From the NCBI GenBank assembly GCA_027623655.1, contig JAQBVG010000002.1, positions 1 through 64,000 of the forward strand: a stretch of DNA of 64,000 nucleotides, given 5' to 3'. The notes under the pieces are model-generated. The model was not told the DNA's origin. It made no database searches and was given only the letters and a program-made list of their open reading frames with translations. Both the position numbers and the translations under genes were made by a program. Below, one piece after another: positions 4,280-12,036 of this stretch. Each line of letters begins with the position of its first letter. The first letter of the stretch is position 1. Origin of the DNA: Chloroflexota bacterium (GTDB lineage: Bacteria > Chloroflexota > Dehalococcoidia > Lucifugimonadales > Lucifugimonadaceae).

Positions 4280-5179
4280 GTGCAATTGCGGGCAAACAGC
4301 GAATCCGGTCCACAACCAGTGACTAATCAGTCGCCAGCACCATCGTTCGTCGCGATTGGTCATCTGACGTTCGATGTAAACGTCGTGGACAACGGTCAAC
4401 CGAGCCATCACACACCCGGCGGGGCCGCGGCTTTCGCTGCTCTGACTGCCGTGAAGCACGGGATGTCAGCCGGAATCGTGACGGCCGTGGATGAAGACTA
4501 TCCGGTTCGCGAAGTGCTGGCCGGCGTGGAGGTCCTGGCGTCGGAAAGTGAACACACTTCAACGTTTGCAAACTACTACGATGCGGGAAACCGGTCACAA
4601 GTACTTCTCGCCTCTGGCAGTAAGATTTCACGGAGGTCCGTACCGCTTGAATGGATTAGCCCGGATATTCTCTTCGCCGGTCCGCTTCTTCACGAACTCC
4701 CCACTGACTGCGTGAACTGGTTTGAAGCCCGTCTATCCTGCCTCGTACCTTCGGGTTGGCTGCGGCGATGGGGTCCCGATGGTGTAATAACCCACGGCAA
4801 CCGCCTTCCCCTTCCGGCCGGTAAGAAATGGAACATCGTGGTCGTTTCTGAGGCTGAAATTCGGGATCTGCCCGAGAAGCAGCTCTTTGGCCTGAGCGAG
4901 ATCGTTTGCGTGACACGGGGCGAAAAAGGAGCGCAACTCTGGCAAGACGGTATTTTGCTTGAAGTGCCGGCACTCCCGGCGACGCCGGTGGATGTCACCG
5001 GAGCCGGAGATATCTGGGCTGCAGCTTTCGTTATCGCACTGAGCGAACAGGTCGACCACTCGAATCTTCTTGAGGCCGGGCGCTACGCCTCCGCGGCAAG
5101 TGCAATCTCAATTGAATCGGAAGGGTTGATCGGCTGCCCATCGAGGGAACAGGTAGTCGAGCGTCTCAGGCGCTCCTAG
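4280..5179 (+). CDS. PfkB-family carbohydrate kinase
   Basis: GHLTFDVN...PGGAAAFAA N-terminus and DVTGAGDIWAAAF C-terminal PfkB signature. Confidence 0.8.
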   Translation: MQLRANSESGPQPVTNQSPAPSFVAIGHLTFDVNVVDNGQPSHHTPGGAAAFAALTAVKHGMSAGIVTAVDEDYPVREVLAGVEVLASESEHTSTFANYYDAGNRSQVLLASGSKISRRSVPLEWISPDILFAGPLLHELPTDCVNWFEARLSCLVPSGWLRRWGPDGVITHGNRLPLPAGKKWNIVVVSEAEIRDLPEKQLFGLSEIVCVTRGEKGAQLWQDGILLEVPALPATPVDVTGAGDIWAAAFVIALSEQVDHSNLLEAGRYASAASAISIESEGLIGCPSREQVVERLRRS

Positions 5180-5661
5180 GCAGATTTCAGGGCTTCGAGT
5201 GCCGCACCTTTATCGAGCAGTCCACCAGACTGCCGCCACAGGACTTCACCGTTGCGTCCGATGACAACGAATGTCGGAGTCAAGTAGGCTCGGTAGTCGC
5301 GAACGAGTTGTCCGGCAATTGCGTCCTGGACGTTCAGTTTGAGAATTTCGACATCGTCCGGTAGTTCACCCTCCAGCCTCTTGACGATGGGTTGTGAAGC
5401 AAGGCACGCGGCGCAGGAATTCGAGAAGAATTCCACGAAGACCGGCTTGCCTGAAGCGATCACGCTCTGTGCTTCCGATTCGCTGCCGACGTTGCTGTCA
5501 CCCGGCTGTAGCGCGAGTACCGCTACGAGTCCGATGATTCCAACCGATGTGTATAGAAGAATGCGTTTCCGCCAGGCTCGGACCGGCAAGAGTGCAAACA
5601 TTGCGATCATGAACCCGGGGATGGCGATGACGGCCGAATACTGGTTTACGAATTCAAACAA
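5176..5661 (-). CDS. Membrane-anchored thioredoxin-fold protein (CAAC active site)
   Basis: N-terminal TM segments then FVEFFSNSCAACLASQPIVKRLE...LTPTFVVIGRNGEVLWRQSG. Confidence 0.8.
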   Translation of the reverse strand: MFEFVNQYSAVIAIPGFMIAMFALLPVRAWRKRILLYTSVGIIGLVAVLALQPGDSNVGSESEAQSVIASGKPVFVEFFSNSCAACLASQPIVKRLEGELPDDVEILKLNVQDAIAGQLVRDYRAYLTPTFVVIGRNGEVLWRQSGGLLDKGAALEALKSA

Positions 5662-5893: not shown

Positions 5894-6571
5894 TCAAACG
5901 GCCGACGGAATACTCGCAAACAGGCTCAACGCGAACCATCCCGGAAGGTCTCTGACGAGCTCTCGAGGTCCATCCATGGTCACCGAACCGCGCCGTATTG
6001 CAGCAACAAAATCGTCTCGTCCGAGCCAGATTTGATGGAGCGTCAGCGTGTCAGCCTCGATGCGGATATCCACCTCAAGCTCTGGATCCTGGTAGCAAAC
6101 CGACGGATGAGGTCTTTCAAACACAAGCCAATAGCGTTGTTCGTGCGATCCCCGAAGTTCGAACCGGGCAACCACTCGGCGGTCAGGCAATAGCTCAACG
6201 TTTATCCGCCTGTGCATGTCCCAGAACAGCAAATCAGGATTCAGGTCTCGCGGCCCGACATCATGATTCACCCATCGGTGGCCCCAATCCCCTAATCCCT
6301 TGACCACGTCGAACAACTCCGATCCGGCTTCAGTAAGGCGATACCTGGGCACTCCGGCAGTTCGATCGATGGACCGTCGGAGCAGTCCGGAGTCTTCCAG
6401 CGATCTCAAGCGTCGTTGTAACATCGAACGCGATATCCGGGGCAGTCCGCGTTCGAGTTCGTTAAATCGGTCGCTGCCCATTAGAAGTTCGCGGAGTATG
6501 AGCGGAGTCCATCTCTGGGCGAAGACTTCCGCGGCTTTTGCGATTGGGCAGAACTGTCCGTAATCTCTCAT
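5894..6571 (-). CDS. HxlR-family winged-helix transcriptional regulator with C-terminal SCP2-like domain
   Basis: MRDYGQFCPIAKAAEVFAQRWTPLILRELLMGSDRFNELERGLPRISRSMLQRRLRSLEDSGLL HxlR wHTH; internal ATG at 6571 preferred over ORF start 6631. Confidence 0.88.
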   Translation of the reverse strand: MRDYGQFCPIAKAAEVFAQRWTPLILRELLMGSDRFNELERGLPRISRSMLQRRLRSLEDSGLLRRSIDRTAGVPRYRLTEAGSELFDVVKGLGDWGHRWVNHDVGPRDLNPDLLFWDMHRRINVELLPDRRVVARFELRGSHEQRYWLVFERPHPSVCYQDPELEVDIRIEADTLTLHQIWLGRDDFVAAIRRGSVTMDGPRELVRDLPGWFALSLFASIPSAV

Positions 6572-6602
6572 CGCCACAACCCTATGCCCGTTAGTTTTAG
6601 CA

Positions 6603-6627
6603 GTCCAGTCCCAAAATAGAACTGGAC
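6603..6627. promoter_or_regulatory. Candidate operator: 7-bp perfect inverted repeat GTCCAGT-N11-ACTGGAC
   Basis: Read directly in the divergent intergenic region between the HxlR gene and the DUF4242-like gene. Confidence 0.5.
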
Positions 6628-6748
6628 ACATGTGGGCATGCTCTTAGACTTGGCATCGACGAGGAACAACGAACTCGTGAAGAACTCGTGGTGTTTCGTC
6701 GGGCTGGCAGAGTCGGGCCGCTACGATCCAAATACAAAGGAGAGGACG

Positions 6749-7000
6749 ATGCCCCTATTTATGGACGTTCATAAAAACGTCGAAGGACTCACAGAACAGG
6801 CGGTCGCGGGGGCGCACGCGAAAGACCTCGAGGTCCAGGCGGAGTATGGAGCGAAGTTTTTAAACTACTGGTACAACGCGGAAGATGGAACGGTCTTCTG
6901 TTTGTCGGAGGCTCCGAACTCTGAGGCTGCCCTGGCAGTTCACACCAATGGTCACGGTTTGGTCGCCGACGAAATAGTTCAGGTTACCGAGGGCCACTAG
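6749..7000 (+). CDS. DUF4242 / SCO4226-like small nickel-binding-type protein
   Basis: MPLFMDVHKNVEGLTEQAVAGAHAKDLEVQAEYGAKFLNYWYNAEDGTVFCLSEAPNSEAALAVHTNGHGLVADEIVQV; AAAGGAGAGG Shine-Dalgarno before the ATG. Confidence 0.75.
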   Translation: MPLFMDVHKNVEGLTEQAVAGAHAKDLEVQAEYGAKFLNYWYNAEDGTVFCLSEAPNSEAALAVHTNGHGLVADEIVQVTEGH

Positions 7001-7113
7001 GACTGTCGCCGGGTGGTTTGCTTCCAACGAGAGCAACTCGGTGCTGGAGCAAATCACCCAATCTCTACCGGCGCCAGTCGGTTGATCGATCAGATCAGGC
7101 GCGGACGTAGTCG

Positions 7114-7153
7114 CCATACAGGCCCGGAATTCCTGGCCGAGGTTACCTGCCGT
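7114..7153. repeat. Copy 2 of a ~40-nt intergenic near-repeat, containing near-palindrome GGCCcGGAATTCCtGGCC
   Basis: ccatacaggcccggaattcctggccgaggttacctgccgt; 33/40 identical to 5781-5820. Confidence 0.6.
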
Positions 7154-8142
7154 TTTGAGTCTGACTCTCGATCGACTGGAGGATGCCTCGCATATGGCCA
7201 ACACAGAAGGCCATGTACTCGCGCCCTTGCGGACTGTCGGTCGAGATGCGGTTCAGATGGTCATAGTCGATCACCCCGTCGTAGCCGACGTCGTTCAACG
7301 CCTTCGCCACGTCGTACATGTTGAGGTCACCTTCGTCCGGCATAACCTCTTCGTATTCGCCGTTCTCGGGAATCGTGCCTTTCACATTTCGAAAGTGAAC
7401 GTGAACAATCTTCTTCCCGAAGCGCTTGATACCTTCGAAAATGTCCTCGCCCGATTCGTAGCGAGTTCCGACGCAGAACGTCATTCCATTGTTTGCTGAG
7501 GGGATTTCGTCAAAGCCGATCGAACGCATCGAAGTTGTACAGGACCTGCGGCACGCCGTTGATCTTCGGGACCGGCAGGTCGTTTCCGTGCATGCCGATT
7601 TTCATGTTGTACTGGTCGGCGATCGGCATCACGTTTCGATAAATGTTGAGTGTGCCCTCCCAGATTTATTCGGCCGTGGGTGCGTCGTCGCGCAACGGCA
7701 TGTTGGCAAGCTGTCTTACGGTCATGCGATGATGCTGGTAGCCACCACGTCCTGTCACCCAGCTGTGGAATTCATCACGAAAGGGACGCAGGGTTGCCGC
7801 CTGAAAGCACTGGATGCCGAACATCGGAAGCCCGGCTTCACCGCAGAGCTCAGCGTTGACCTGTAGGTTTTCGATTTCTCTGTCGCCATCGGGAAGACCA
7901 AGGAAGGCATTCACGTAGTCGGGTCCCGACGTGTTGGCGCGTTCTATCTTCAGTCCCGCGTCATCAAGTTTTTCGATAACCGTCGCGAGACCCTCACGGC
8001 TGGCTCGCCCACCAGCCTCGCTGTAACCCGGCACCATGTCGAGAACGACGTCGACGTAGTCGACTCCGATCTGCTTAATGAACTTGAGATCTTCGGGACG
8101 GTCGATCCAGTCAGCGCTTATGCGGGTACCGATCCTGATCAT
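7143..8142 (-). pseudogene. Disrupted mannonate dehydratase / sugar isomerase-like TIM-barrel gene
   Basis: ORF 7666..8142 (MIRIGTRISADWI...) stops at TAA 7666-7668; the same frame continues IWEGTLNIYRNVMPIADQYNMKIGMHGNDLPVPKINGVPQVLYNFDAF; a frameshift at ~7515-7545 then leads into ORF 7143..7529 (FDEIPSANNGMTFCVGTRYESGEDIFEGIKRFGKKIVHVHFRNVKG). Confidence 0.75.
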
Positions 8143-8211
8143 GAATTCGCCTCCTAAGTGCGGGCCTGTTTCCTGGCGCGGCTGTGACTGTTCGTCGACC
8201 TGAAACCCGGC

Positions 8212-10320
8212 TTAGCCCGGTGTTGCGTTCAGTTCATTCAGTCGACTTTCCAGTACCGCAACCCTTGACGCCGGGGCGTTCAAATTCGTCGCCGCAAGTA
8301 TCGCATTCCGAAGGTGAGTCGCTGCCTCTGATCTTGCATCCACACCTGCGGCGACACTCGAGGCCATTTCGTAATACTTCATTGCACGATCGTGATCACC
8401 AGCCTCCGAGAAGTGATATCCGAGTCGATGCGCGTTGCCTTCAAGGTCTCCCTGGAAAATTGATTCCATAGCCTCAGCCACCTGAAGATGCAGTTCGCGC
8501 CGTCGTCGATGGAGTATCGAGCTGTAGGCGGCGTCCCGGGCTATTTCGTGCTTGAAGATGTACTGGAGATTGGGTAGCCGCATCTGCTCCTGGATCAGTT
8601 CCTGGCTCTCCAGTGTCGTAAGCTGCCTGTCGAGTTCGAGGGTGGAATCCGATATCTGGCCAAGAATGCTGTGGTAGAACGCTCGCCCGATAACAGATGC
8701 CAGCTGGAGCGTGGCTTTTGCCTCGCCCGTGAGCCGGTCCATACGCGCCATGAGAAGCGACTGGAGCGAATCTGGAATCTTCGCATCGGTAACGTCGCTG
8801 GATTCGTCCCACTCCAATCCCTCTTCTGTGTGACGGATCATCCCGTGATCGATGAACCACCTGACCACCTCTTCAACGAAGTAAGGATTGCCTTCTGACT
8901 TTCTGAGTACGAGATCTCGGGCATCGGCTGGAAAATTTCGAATATGGAGGAGCGCCGTGATCAGTTCGTTCGTGTGCTCATTGTCCAGGGGGTGTAGCGT
9001 AATCTCTGTGTAAATGTCGGGATACTTGCTTCTGACGACTTCCCGCAATCTCTGTGCTGGCGATTGCGGGTCGGGTCGGAACGCCAGTAGCAACAGGGTC
9101 GAGGAGCCTTTCACAATATCCATCAAGTGAACCACCAATTCCAGCGACGCGTCATCCGACCACTGGAGATCGTCGAAAACGACAATTAGTGGAGTTAGCT
9201 GAGCCTGTTGCAAAAAGGCCGGAGCGACAACGTCAAAGAGGTCTCGCTTAATCGATTCCGCGGGGTAATTGGGGGCGTCGTGTAGGACCTTTGCGGCAAT
9301 CATTTTTTCGATCGCGACACTACATAGCGACACTTCGCCGTCCGACCCTCCCATCGAGCGGAGCGCATCGTCTACTTTTGCGTGTATGACGCTGGGAGCA
9401 TCGTTCAGTTGGACATCGAATTTTTGGCGCGCCATGTTTTGGAATAGCGAGTAGGGGCGGCCCATATCGTAGGGAATACCCTGGCCGAAATCCCATGTGC
9501 GCTCTGGCATTGTTTTGAACCACTCACTCCGTAGTTCATCGAGTAACCGACTTTTGCCCAGTCCAGCGTCCCCAATCAGAGAAACGATCTGGCCAGTTCC
9601 GCTCTTGATCGATTCGGCCAGTCCGACGAGTTGACTGAACTCCTTGTCACGCCCAATCAGCGGAGCCACAAGACCCCTGGGCCGCTCAGTTCGCAGGCGG
9701 GTGCGGATGACGCGGTAAACATCGACCGGCTCCGCTTTGCCTTTCACTTCTATCCCGCCAAGCGGCTCGAGATCAAATACGCCCTCGATCAGCCGCTGGG
9801 TATCGGACGAGATCTGCAACGTCCCGGCCTACGCTGTCTGCTCCATCCTGGCGGCTACATTTACAGCGTCGCCCATCGCCGTGTACTCGGTAACGGCGGA
9901 GGAGCCTACGTCTCCGACGACCACCAGCCCGGTGTTGATTCCAATTCGGACGTTGAAATCCTGACCGTAGTCCTGACGGACACTTTCCCGAAGTTCGTTG
10001 ATACCGTCCAGGATTTCGAGGCCAGCCCGCACAGCCCGTTCAGGGTCGTCTTCATGGCTAACAGGTGCACCGAAGAAAGCCATCAGGCCGTCACCGGTGA
10101 ACTTTCCGACGGTCCCTTCGTAACGAAGGATCGGAGCCGTCATGTGCTCAAAGGCTTCATTCATGATGTCGACCCACTCTTCGGGATCGAACTGCTCGGC
10201 AAGCGAAGTTGAACTCACAACGTCGCAAAACAGCAGGCTGAGAACCCGACGCTCCCCCCGACTTGAACGGGAGCGTCCGCTGGAGCGGGTTGGCATGCTG
10301 GACGGCATCACATTTTCCAT
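8212..10320 (-). pseudogene. Class III adenylate/guanylate cyclase fused to AAA/TPR-type ATPase, interrupted by an in-frame TAG
   Basis: Cyclase part 9829..10320 (LSLLFCDVVSSTSLAEQFDPEEW...VGKFTGDGLMAFFGAP) ends ARMEQTA-TAG; same frame continues AGT-LQISSDTQRLIEGVFDLEPLGGIEVKGKAEPVDVYR, then Walker A GDAGLGKSRLLDEL in 8212..9819. Confidence 0.7.
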
Positions 10321-10474: not shown

Positions 10475-11095
10475 TCAACTCGAAGGCGGTCCGTTCAGCA
10501 GCGCACTCAGGGAATATTCGGCTTCGAAACGGCCGTCGAGTTCCAACCGATGTGTACAGAGTGTCACGTGATTGTGGTCGCATGTGGCGAGTATTTGCTC
10601 AAATCTATCGACAGTGGTGTTCCCGAAGAGAAGCAATACGGGCAGCACATGGCGTCGTTCAGCCTGGAAGATCGCAGCCTGATACCACAGCGCCTGCCTT
10701 AAACCATCGGACCATGAGTCGGCACGTTCGATTTCAATCACATGAGTCGGGAACTTTGAACTAAACCCGATCAGGAGATCGGCACGCTCTTTGCCGGTCC
10801 ACATTGCCGCCTGTTCTATTGCGTTTACGCCTGCCAGTCTGAAGATGCGAGTCACCTCTTCCTGGATTTCGGCTTCAGCCTTTTTCGGAATACCCTGGGC
10901 TGCGTCGAAGCCCTTCATGATTCCGTCTTTTAATGTCGCGTGGGACAGATTGAACTGGGACTCCCAGGCCGAATAGAGGGCCGCTTTTCGGGTGTTGCTG
11001 AGCTGGGACCAGCCGACTGCATCCGCCTCCTGATGGATGGTCGAGACAATCGTTTCTCGTTCGTGTTCCAGCAGTTCAGTCAGCGTTCGAGTCAT
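10475..11095 (-). CDS. Unrecognised protein, candidate PD-(D/E)XK-like restriction endonuclease partner of the adjacent methyltransferase
   Basis: RADLLIGF...THVIEIERADSWSDGLRQALWYQA: D...ExE followed by QxxxY; ATGA translational coupling with the methyltransferase. Confidence 0.5.
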   Translation of the reverse strand: MTRTLTELLEHERETIVSTIHQEADAVGWSQLSNTRKAALYSAWESQFNLSHATLKDGIMKGFDAAQGIPKKAEAEIQEEVTRIFRLAGVNAIEQAAMWTGKERADLLIGFSSKFPTHVIEIERADSWSDGLRQALWYQAAIFQAERRHVLPVLLLFGNTTVDRFEQILATCDHNHVTLCTHRLELDGRFEAEYSLSALLNGPPSS

Positions 11096-12036
11096 GGTTT
11101 CTTCACCACCGACGGCTTGAATTTTTTGCCGCTGGCGTGGGCCTCAAGCCGGTCCTGTGCCAGTTCGACGTACTCAGACGATACGTCGTAGCCAACAAAA
11201 TGGCGATGATTCTTGACCGCTGCGAGCGCCGTCGAGCCAGTCCCCATGAAGGGGTCGAGCACCACTTCGCCAGAGAACGTGTACAACTCAATTGCCCGCC
11301 GTGGCAATTCTTCCGGGAACGGTGCCGGATGTCCGACCTGTCTGGCTGATTGCGGGGCAAATTCCCAGACGCTTTTCGTGAATTCCAGGAAATCATCTCG
11401 TTTTATTGTCGCCTGGCGTCCTTCGAGCGGTTTTCTGCCGAAAGGGGCCTTCTGGAATACGAGAATGTACTCGTGCGTATCACGGAGGGTTGGATTTGAC
11501 GGCGACATCCAACTTCCCCATGCGGTCGAGCTCCCTGCACCCGCCGATTTGTTCCATATGATCTCCCCCCGCATATGAAATCCGGCAAGTGACGCCTGCT
11601 CGATGACGTAGGCGTGAAGAGGGATATAGGGTTTCCGGCCGAGATTTGCCACGTTTACAAGCGCGCGCCCGCCGTCGACCAATACTCTAAACGTCTCGCG
11701 TAATACGTTGCCGATAAGCTCCATGTACTGCTCATGCGTGAGATCGTCGTCGTAGTCTTTCCCTACGTTGTAGGGGGGAGACGTAACCATGAGGTGGACG
11801 GAACGGTCCGGAAGTTCCGTCATTCGCTCGCTGGAGTGAACGAATATACGGTCCAGGAACTCGGTCGGAATCGACTGTTCCGGCTCAGCCTTCCTGTCGA
11901 GGCTTGCCCGATCTTCCGGCTGAAGCGCGCGCGCATAGTACTCGGAAGAATCGTGGCTGAATCGCCCGTTGGTCCCAAAGCGCGAAGTGCTTGTGGGGCG
12001 CTGTTTGGGTGTGGATGTTGATCGACGTTGCGTCAT
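11092..12036 (-). CDS. Site-specific DNA methyltransferase (TSPPY catalytic motif, N4-cytosine/N6-adenine type)
   Basis: HLMVTSPPYNVGKDYDD catalytic motif precedes SAM-binding VVLDPFMGTGSTALAAVKNHRHFVGYDVS (beta-type order). Confidence 0.9.
   Translation of the reverse strand: MTQRRSTSTPKQRPTSTSRFGTNGRFSHDSSEYYARALQPEDRASLDRKAEPEQSIPTEFLDRIFVHSSERMTELPDRSVHLMVTSPPYNVGKDYDDDLTHEQYMELIGNVLRETFRVLVDGGRALVNVANLGRKPYIPLHAYVIEQASLAGFHMRGEIIWNKSAGAGSSTAWGSWMSPSNPTLRDTHEYILVFQKAPFGRKPLEGRQATIKRDDFLEFTKSVWEFAPQSARQVGHPAPFPEELPRRAIELYTFSGEVVLDPFMGTGSTALAAVKNHRHFVGYDVSSEYVELAQDRLEAHASGKKFKPSVVKKP

What the first reader, a model, noticed from the sequence alone, without database searches (positions are those of the whole stretch)
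10475..12036. Candidate undescribed restriction-modification-like module: TSPPY methyltransferase coupled to a D...ExE...QxxxY protein
Seen: the methyltransferase (TSPPY before DPFMGTGS) ends in an ATGA overlap with a 206-aa ORF whose sequence I do not recognise. That ORF has RADLLIGF-(n)-VIEIER then RQALWYQA, i.e. D...ExE plus a QxxxY. Established: PD-(D/E)XK nucleases tolerate an ExE variant (BamHI), QxxxY occurs in RecB-like nucleases, and MTase/REase genes are commonly adjacent. Inference: the ORF is the cognate endonuclease or another methylation-dependent effector. Its helical N-terminus could be a DNA-recognition or dimerisation domain.
Basis: partly seen in the sequence, partly recalled or inferred. 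Interest (0 to 1): 0.72.

Follow-up and report, generated by a model that had tools for sequence, protein, structure and literature searches.

The report
Nuclease-like partner of SAR202 DNA methyltransferase
A DNA-methylating enzyme that a family of ocean bacteria (SAR202) has inherited for a long time is, in one genus only, always translated together with an undescribed small protein that looks like a DNA-cutting enzyme; either an unusually stable restriction system or a methylation-linked housekeeping nuclease, and existing PacBio reads of a cultured strain could help decide.

Summary
A beta-class DNA methyltransferase (TSPPY, DPFMGTGS; PF01555) overlaps by 4 bases a 206-aa ORF ("P206") that matches no Pfam, NCBIfam, PADLOC or PDB entry. 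P206 is present, intact and directly downstream of the methyltransferase in all 19 held genomes of the genus (SAR202; includes cultured Ca. Lucifugimonas marina JH1073) and in 0 of 57 other genomes of the family. D106, E121, E123, Q134 and Y138 are invariant. Residues 74-138 match phage Cas4-like PD-(D/E)XK mini-nucleases (hhalign E 1.7e-6, far above shuffles), with the catalytic Lys replaced by Glu (ExE, as in BamHI). So the nuclease-like reading is supported; cutting is not shown. New facts: the methyltransferase is vertically inherited and solitary in most sister genera; orthologues elsewhere sit beside ThaI (CGCG) endonucleases, so CGCG is its predicted site; P206 is unrelated to ThaI and evolves as slowly as core genes. 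That is unlike patchy, fast-lost restriction systems, and CGCG avoidance does not track P206. Best reading: a genus-fixed restriction-modification-like pair with a novel endonuclease family (about 0.45); main rival: a domesticated methylation-linked nuclease or DNA-binding partner.

The parts
11092..12036 (-). beta-class site-specific DNA methyltransferase, 314 aa (order motif IV TSPPY then motif I DPFMGTGS; SPPY suggests N4-cytosine)
   Evidence: PF01555 E=6e-45; PADLOC MTase_II PDLC03350 E=7e-116; PDB 2zie putative modification methylase E=6e-37 and N4-cytosine enzyme 8s9n; matches in 48/76 genomes of the family
11770..11784 (-). motif IV TSPPY (residues 85-89)
   Evidence: sequence; present in all orthologues aligned over that region
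11233..11256 (-). motif I DPFMGTGS (residues 261-268)
   Evidence: sequence; DPFMGTG[ST] in all 19 loci of the genus
11092..11095 (-). ATGA start/stop overlap of the two genes
   Evidence: ATGA or TAATG overlap in 17 of 18 other loci of the genus
10475..11095 (-). P206: 206-aa nuclease-like partner protein, undescribed family
   Evidence: no Pfam/NCBIfam/PADLOC/PDB match; 19/19 genomes of the genus, 0/57 of the rest of the family
10877..11095 (-). P206 N-terminal helical domain (residues 1-73), absent from the phage mini-nucleases; possible recognition or dimerisation part (inference)
10625..10876 (-). P206 PD-(D/E)XK-like core (residues 74-157)
   Evidence: hhalign E=1.7e-6, probability 90, residues 74-138; H74-87 E91-97 E104-112 E115-124 H125-144 E151-157 in the second model
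10778..10780 (-). predicted catalytic D106
   Evidence: invariant in P206 and in phage mini-nucleases
10727..10735 (-). E121-I-E123, ExE in place of ExK
   Evidence: E121 invariant in all 31 rows; E123 aligns with the Lys of the phage enzymes
10682..10696 (-). Q134...Y138, QxxxY motif
   Evidence: invariant in all 31 rows

Best explanation
The two genes are one translationally coupled module. The methyltransferase marks a short site (predicted CGCG, probably N4-methylcytosine). P206 is a divergent PD-(D/E)XK-type nuclease: a helical N-terminal domain followed by a Cas4/RecB-like core with D106, E121-x-E123 (Glu in place of the usual Lys, as in BamHI) and QxxxY. Most likely it acts as the endonuclease partner that cleaves DNA lacking the mark, taking the place that ThaI-type endonucleases hold beside related methyltransferases. 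In this genus the pair became a fixed, vertically inherited core feature. Shown: gene pairing, conservation, distribution, profile relation to PD-(D/E)XK nucleases. Inferred: base and site of methylation, DNA cleavage, dependence of cleavage on methylation.
For: Same-strand overlapping genes kept in the genus. P206 in 19/19 genomes of the genus and never without the methyltransferase. Profile match of P206 74-138 to phage mini-nucleases, score 42.3 against at most 22.2 in 100 column shuffles, aligning E74, R104, D106, E121, Q134 and Y138. All 19 members match phrog_5928, best E=2.5e-4, and some match PDDEXK_15 weakly. Model core has the expected topology; best viral-library structure match is a PD-(D/E)XK nuclease, E=2e-4, probability 1.00. 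Methyltransferase orthologues at about 55-61% identity have a ThaI endonuclease (PF15514) in the same position in five loci. Lys replaced by an acidic residue is a known PD-(D/E)XK variant (PMC1189080).
Against: No activity data. The methyltransferase is solitary in most sister genera, so it does not need a nuclease. P206 evolves as slowly as a core gene (dN 0.096 against 0.109 for the methyltransferase and 0.200-0.258 for UbiA and TlyA) and is never lost in the genus, unlike typical restriction systems (compare PMC6471742). CGCG observed/expected is 0.55-0.60 in some genomes of the genus but 0.82-0.94 in others, overlapping genera without P206. QxxxY cores are typical of RecB, Cas4 and HsdR rather than of small Type II enzymes (own knowledge). 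The unbiased structure model was poor, and the better one used an alignment that contains the phage nucleases.
Confidence: 0.45

Rival explanations
1. P206 is a domesticated, methylation-linked housekeeping nuclease or repair factor (works like Vsr beside Dcm, or like a RecB/Cas4-type processing nuclease), not a restriction enzyme. It acts on damaged, mismatched or hemimethylated sites made relevant by an ancestral core methyltransferase.
For: Vertical inheritance of the methyltransferase in the family (26 of 27 rows one clade, 99/96), genus-specific and then fixed P206, core-gene rate of evolution, RecB/Cas4-type QxxxY core, no consistent site avoidance.
Against: No Pfam match to Vsr or another repair family at E up to 10. 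The usual reason for Vsr, deamination of m5C to T, does not apply to m4C (own knowledge). Kin of the methyltransferase pair with true endonucleases in the same position.
Confidence: 0.28
2. P206 is catalytically inactive: the Lys-to-Glu change marks a lost active site. It is a DNA-binding or regulatory subunit that helps the methyltransferase find or release its sites, or controls its level.
For: The catalytic Lys is replaced in all 19 members, while every phage relative aligned keeps it. Translational coupling would give a fixed ratio.
Against: The other active-site positions E74, D106, E121, Q134 and Y138 stay invariant. ExE is compatible with catalysis (PMC1189080). The same methyltransferase is conserved without P206 in sister genera.
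Confidence: 0.17
3. P206 is not a nuclease at all; the D...ExE...QxxxY pattern is coincidental and its fold is something else.
For: First, unbiased model has a low-confidence C-terminal half. No PDB fold match at E<=0.001. Single-sequence profile hits are weak.
Against: Profile comparison far above 100-200 shuffled and reversed controls; concordant weak hits from independent libraries.
Confidence: 0.1

Closest known systems
phrog_5928 / phage Cas4-like mini PD-(D/E)XK nucleases (about 120 aa, next to a helicase gene)
   Same: Core motif E...R-x-D...(I/V)E-x-[K/E]...RQ...Y; profile match E=1.7e-6 over residues 74-138
   Different: Phage proteins lack the helical N-terminal domain, keep Lys at the third catalytic position, and sit beside helicases, not this methyltransferase
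ThaI Type II restriction-modification system (CGCG; PF15514 endonuclease)
   Same: The methyltransferase is an orthologue of ThaI-linked methyltransferases (about 55-61% identity); endonuclease of similar size in the same downstream position
   Different: P206 has no relation to ThaI by profile comparison (probability 0.1); ThaI occurs in only 1 of 76 genomes of the family
BamHI-type ExE endonucleases
   Same: D...ExE arrangement with Glu in place of Lys (BamHI from own knowledge; variant described in PMC1189080)
   Different: No sequence match to any PDB chain, BamHI included; P206 adds QxxxY
Conserved orphan methyltransferases (Dam, CcrM, cyanobacterial M.Ssp6803II, haloarchaeal CTAG enzymes)
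   Same: Vertical, family-wide retention of a mostly solitary methyltransferase
   Different: Here one genus has a fixed, translationally coupled nuclease-like partner
Dcm-Vsr pair
   Same: Overlapping genes of a cytosine methyltransferase and a PD-(D/E)XK-like endonuclease that is not a restriction enzyme (own knowledge)
   Different: No sequence match to Vsr; methyltransferase is the beta-class SPPY type, not the m5C type

Membership tests
PD-(D/E)XK nuclease superfamily | detectable profile relation to members | tested here: met
   hhalign E=1.7e-6, probability 90; maximum of 100 shuffles 22.2 against 42.3
PD-(D/E)XK nuclease superfamily | D...(D/E)xK active site | tested here: inconclusive
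   D106 and E121 invariant; Lys is Glu (E123) in all 19, a known but uncommon variant
PD-(D/E)XK nuclease superfamily | alpha-beta-beta-beta-alpha-beta core fold | tested here: inconclusive
   Topology seen at pLDDT about 64-83 in a model built with phage relatives in the alignment; viral match E=2e-4; no significant PDB match
RecB/Cas4-like nucleases | QxxxY motif after the ExK strand | tested here: met
   Q134 and Y138 invariant in 31 rows
Type II restriction-modification system | methyltransferase of an R-M-linked family next to an endonuclease gene | tested here: inconclusive
   Methyltransferase met; partner nuclease-like but not a known endonuclease
Type II restriction-modification system | endonuclease cuts the unmethylated site of the methyltransferase | not testable with these tools
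   needs biochemistry; indirect test by CGCG avoidance was inconclusive
ThaI restriction-modification system | PF15514 endonuclease | tested here: not met
   P206 unrelated; PF15514 absent from all 19 genomes of the genus
Orphan (solitary) methyltransferase | no linked nuclease | tested here: not met
   true in most sister genera, but not in this genus, where the nuclease-like P206 is always linked
Vsr endonuclease | match to the Vsr family | tested here: not met
   no Vsr family among Pfam hits up to E=10 for 19 members

The most novel reading that the evidence does not exclude
P206 founds a new family of methylation-coupled nucleases with a BamHI-like ExE site on a Cas4/RecB-type core, which was recruited to a long-established solitary methyltransferase and became an obligatory, vertically inherited genome-maintenance or self-recognition module of a SAR202 genus rather than a mobile restriction system.
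Probability: 0.25. Interest if true: 0.72.

Novelty: new variant of a known kind. Interest (0 to 1): 0.5.

Why it matters
It reverses the usual story in which orphan methyltransferases are relics of restriction systems: here an old, mostly solitary methyltransferase has a nuclease-like partner in one genus, and the pair is as conserved as core metabolism in an abundant, barely cultivated ocean lineage. It also gives a first testable epigenetic system in SAR202 and a candidate new endonuclease family. One member of the genus is in culture and was sequenced on PacBio RS II (PMC10444878), so the methylation side can be tested from existing reads if the kinetic data were kept.

Tried and rejected
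AlphaFold2 with the 19 close P206 homologues alone: poor C-terminal half (block pLDDT 30-57), not usable. P206 as a distant ThaI endonuclease: rejected. Remains of ThaI genes after solitary methyltransferases: none found. P206 homologues in phages, plasmids or viral contigs by direct search: none. Vsr, NCBIfam, PADLOC and PDB sequence matches for P206: none. Avoidance of CGCG as a sign of active restriction: variable within the genus, inconclusive; GGCC is equally depleted in the same genomes. Recent horizontal arrival of P206: not supported by composition, since its GC follows each host. Fold search in the PDB: PD-(D/E)XK entries among the top hits but none significant. Literature on SAR202 methylation: the cultivation paper mentions no methyltransferase or restriction; the 2022 marine metaepigenomics paper is not held.

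Full report
Observation. The methyltransferase is PF01555, PADLOC MTase_II, closest in the PDB to 2zie and next to N4-cytosine enzymes. Motif order (TSPPY before DPFMGTGS) makes it beta-class; SPPY suggests N4-cytosine (established knowledge, not tested). P206 has no match in Pfam, NCBIfam, PADLOC or PDB sequences; only a weak PHROG hit.

Distribution. Eighteen further species loci encode P206 at 79-89% identity, all SAR202/Dehalococcoidia, all with the same methyltransferase directly upstream and, where the contigs reach, the same Fe-S oxidoreductase and UbiA genes beyond it. A family-wide profile search finds P206 in 19 of 19 genomes of the window's genus and 0 of 57 genomes of other genera; it was absent from samples of the class and phylum outside this genus and from phages, plasmids and viral contigs. 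The two sets of genus genomes probably overlap and are not independent. G290, with one contig of 3,094,136 bases, has the length of CP046147.1, the cultured Ca. Lucifugimonas marina JH1073.

The methyltransferase is older than the pair. It has matches in 48 of 76 genomes of the family, nearly all of them close orthologues. On a tree 26 of 27 family rows form one clade (99/96) with genera largely coherent. In several genera it sits beside the same Fe-S oxidoreductase gene as here, so the locus is ancestral, but P206 is missing and the downstream neighbours differ. In a sample of 400 Chloroflexota, orthologues at 45-61% identity are patchy (22 genomes). Five methyltransferase loci have a ThaI endonuclease (PF15514; E down to 1e-94 for the four scanned, the fifth by similarity) directly downstream: G257 of this family plus four outside it. 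ThaI recognises CGCG (established), so CGCG is the predicted site. PF15514 is otherwise absent from the family (1 of 76). P206 is not a ThaI relative.

What P206 is. All 19 members match phrog_5928, best E=2.5e-4; some match Pfam PDDEXK_15 weakly over residues 70-163. Phage homologues of a phrog_5928 member are annotated as Cas4-like or PD-(D/E)XK nucleases, mostly next to helicases. Profile-profile comparison aligns P206 residues 74-138 with them: first set E=5.2e-5, score 34.2 against a maximum of 22.1 in 200 column shuffles and 14.0 reversed; larger set E=1.7e-6, probability 90, score 42.3 against 22.2 in 100 shuffles. E74, R104, D106, E121, Q134 and Y138 are invariant across P206 and the phage enzymes; the catalytic Lys of the phage enzymes is Glu123 in P206. 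Replacement of Lys by an acidic residue is a described variant (PMC1189080). A first model from P206 homologues alone was poor except for the N-terminal helices. A second model, with phage relatives in the alignment and therefore biased, shows helix, three strands, helix, strand at block pLDDT of about 64-83; its best viral-library match is a PD-(D/E)XK nuclease (E=2e-4, probability 1.00), and its PDB matches are not significant.

Selection. Against the window, P206 has mean pN 0.090 and pS 0.81 (saturated), dN 0.096; the methyltransferase 0.109, the oxidoreductase 0.108, UbiA 0.200, TlyA 0.258. The start/stop overlap is ATGA or TAATG in 17 of 18 other loci; the exception, L012, has a broken methyltransferase frame in a metagenome assembly and could not be scored. 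GC content of P206 follows each host.

Restriction footprint. CGCG observed/expected is 0.55-0.60 in three genomes of the genus (one of the two most depleted tetramers), 0.69 in one, and 0.82-0.94 in four others including the window's genome; genera with the methyltransferase alone give 0.77-0.80, the ThaI carrier 0.83 and a GC-rich genome without the methyltransferase 0.82. Avoidance therefore does not follow P206. GGCC shows the same pattern. This neither shows nor excludes restriction.

Interpretation. Pairing, conservation and the nuclease-type core are shown. That P206 cleaves DNA, and that methylation of the shared site blocks it, are inferences. A nuclease-like gene in the position that a ThaI-type endonuclease holds beside related methyltransferases favours a restriction-modification-like pair (0.45). 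Fixation, slow evolution and a RecB/Cas4-type core favour a domesticated methylation-linked nuclease (0.28); the Lys-to-Glu change leaves room for an inactive DNA-binding partner (0.17). Restriction systems are usually patchy and orphan methyltransferases conserved (PMC6471742); this pair shows the second pattern with a partner typical of the first.

Limits. Most genomes are metagenome assemblies. The search outside Chloroflexota could find only close relatives of P206 (one search used short exact peptides), so distant homologues elsewhere are not excluded. Site and base of methylation are predictions. Whether P206 was gained by this genus or lost by all the others was not resolved, though loss in every other genus would need many events.

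Noticed in passing
window 8212-10320, minus strand: A nucleotide cyclase plus AAA_16 ATPase gene (PF00211, PF13191) is interrupted by an in-frame TAG between ...ARMEQTA and AGTLQISSD...; a pseudogene, a strain-specific stop or an assembly error.
   Followed up: partly
window 7143-8142, minus strand: A mannonate dehydratase (UxuA, PF03786) appears split over two ORFs in different frames, suggesting a frameshift.
   Followed up: no
window about 5894-10320: About 4.5 kb (HxlR regulator, SCO4226-like protein, UxuA, cyclase-ATPase) lies between P206 and the thioredoxin-like gene 5179-5661, which in the other loci of the genus follows P206 after roughly 120-370 bases; the inserted genes had no match in those loci.
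   Followed up: partly
G290, G298, G306, G292 (same genus): GGCC is as strongly depleted as CGCG (observed/expected 0.46-0.61), which may point to another methylation or restriction activity.
   Followed up: no
L071 (G304:C160:4845-5192): A phrog_5928 mini-nuclease lies after an ASCH-like ORF and a DPPY-type methyltransferase ORF, a phage-like cluster in the same genus.
   Followed up: partly
L010, L015, L016, L018, P206 residues 111-196: Weak matches of the P206 C-terminal half to DUF6997 (PF22518, best E=0.0035), a domain of unknown function.
   Followed up: no
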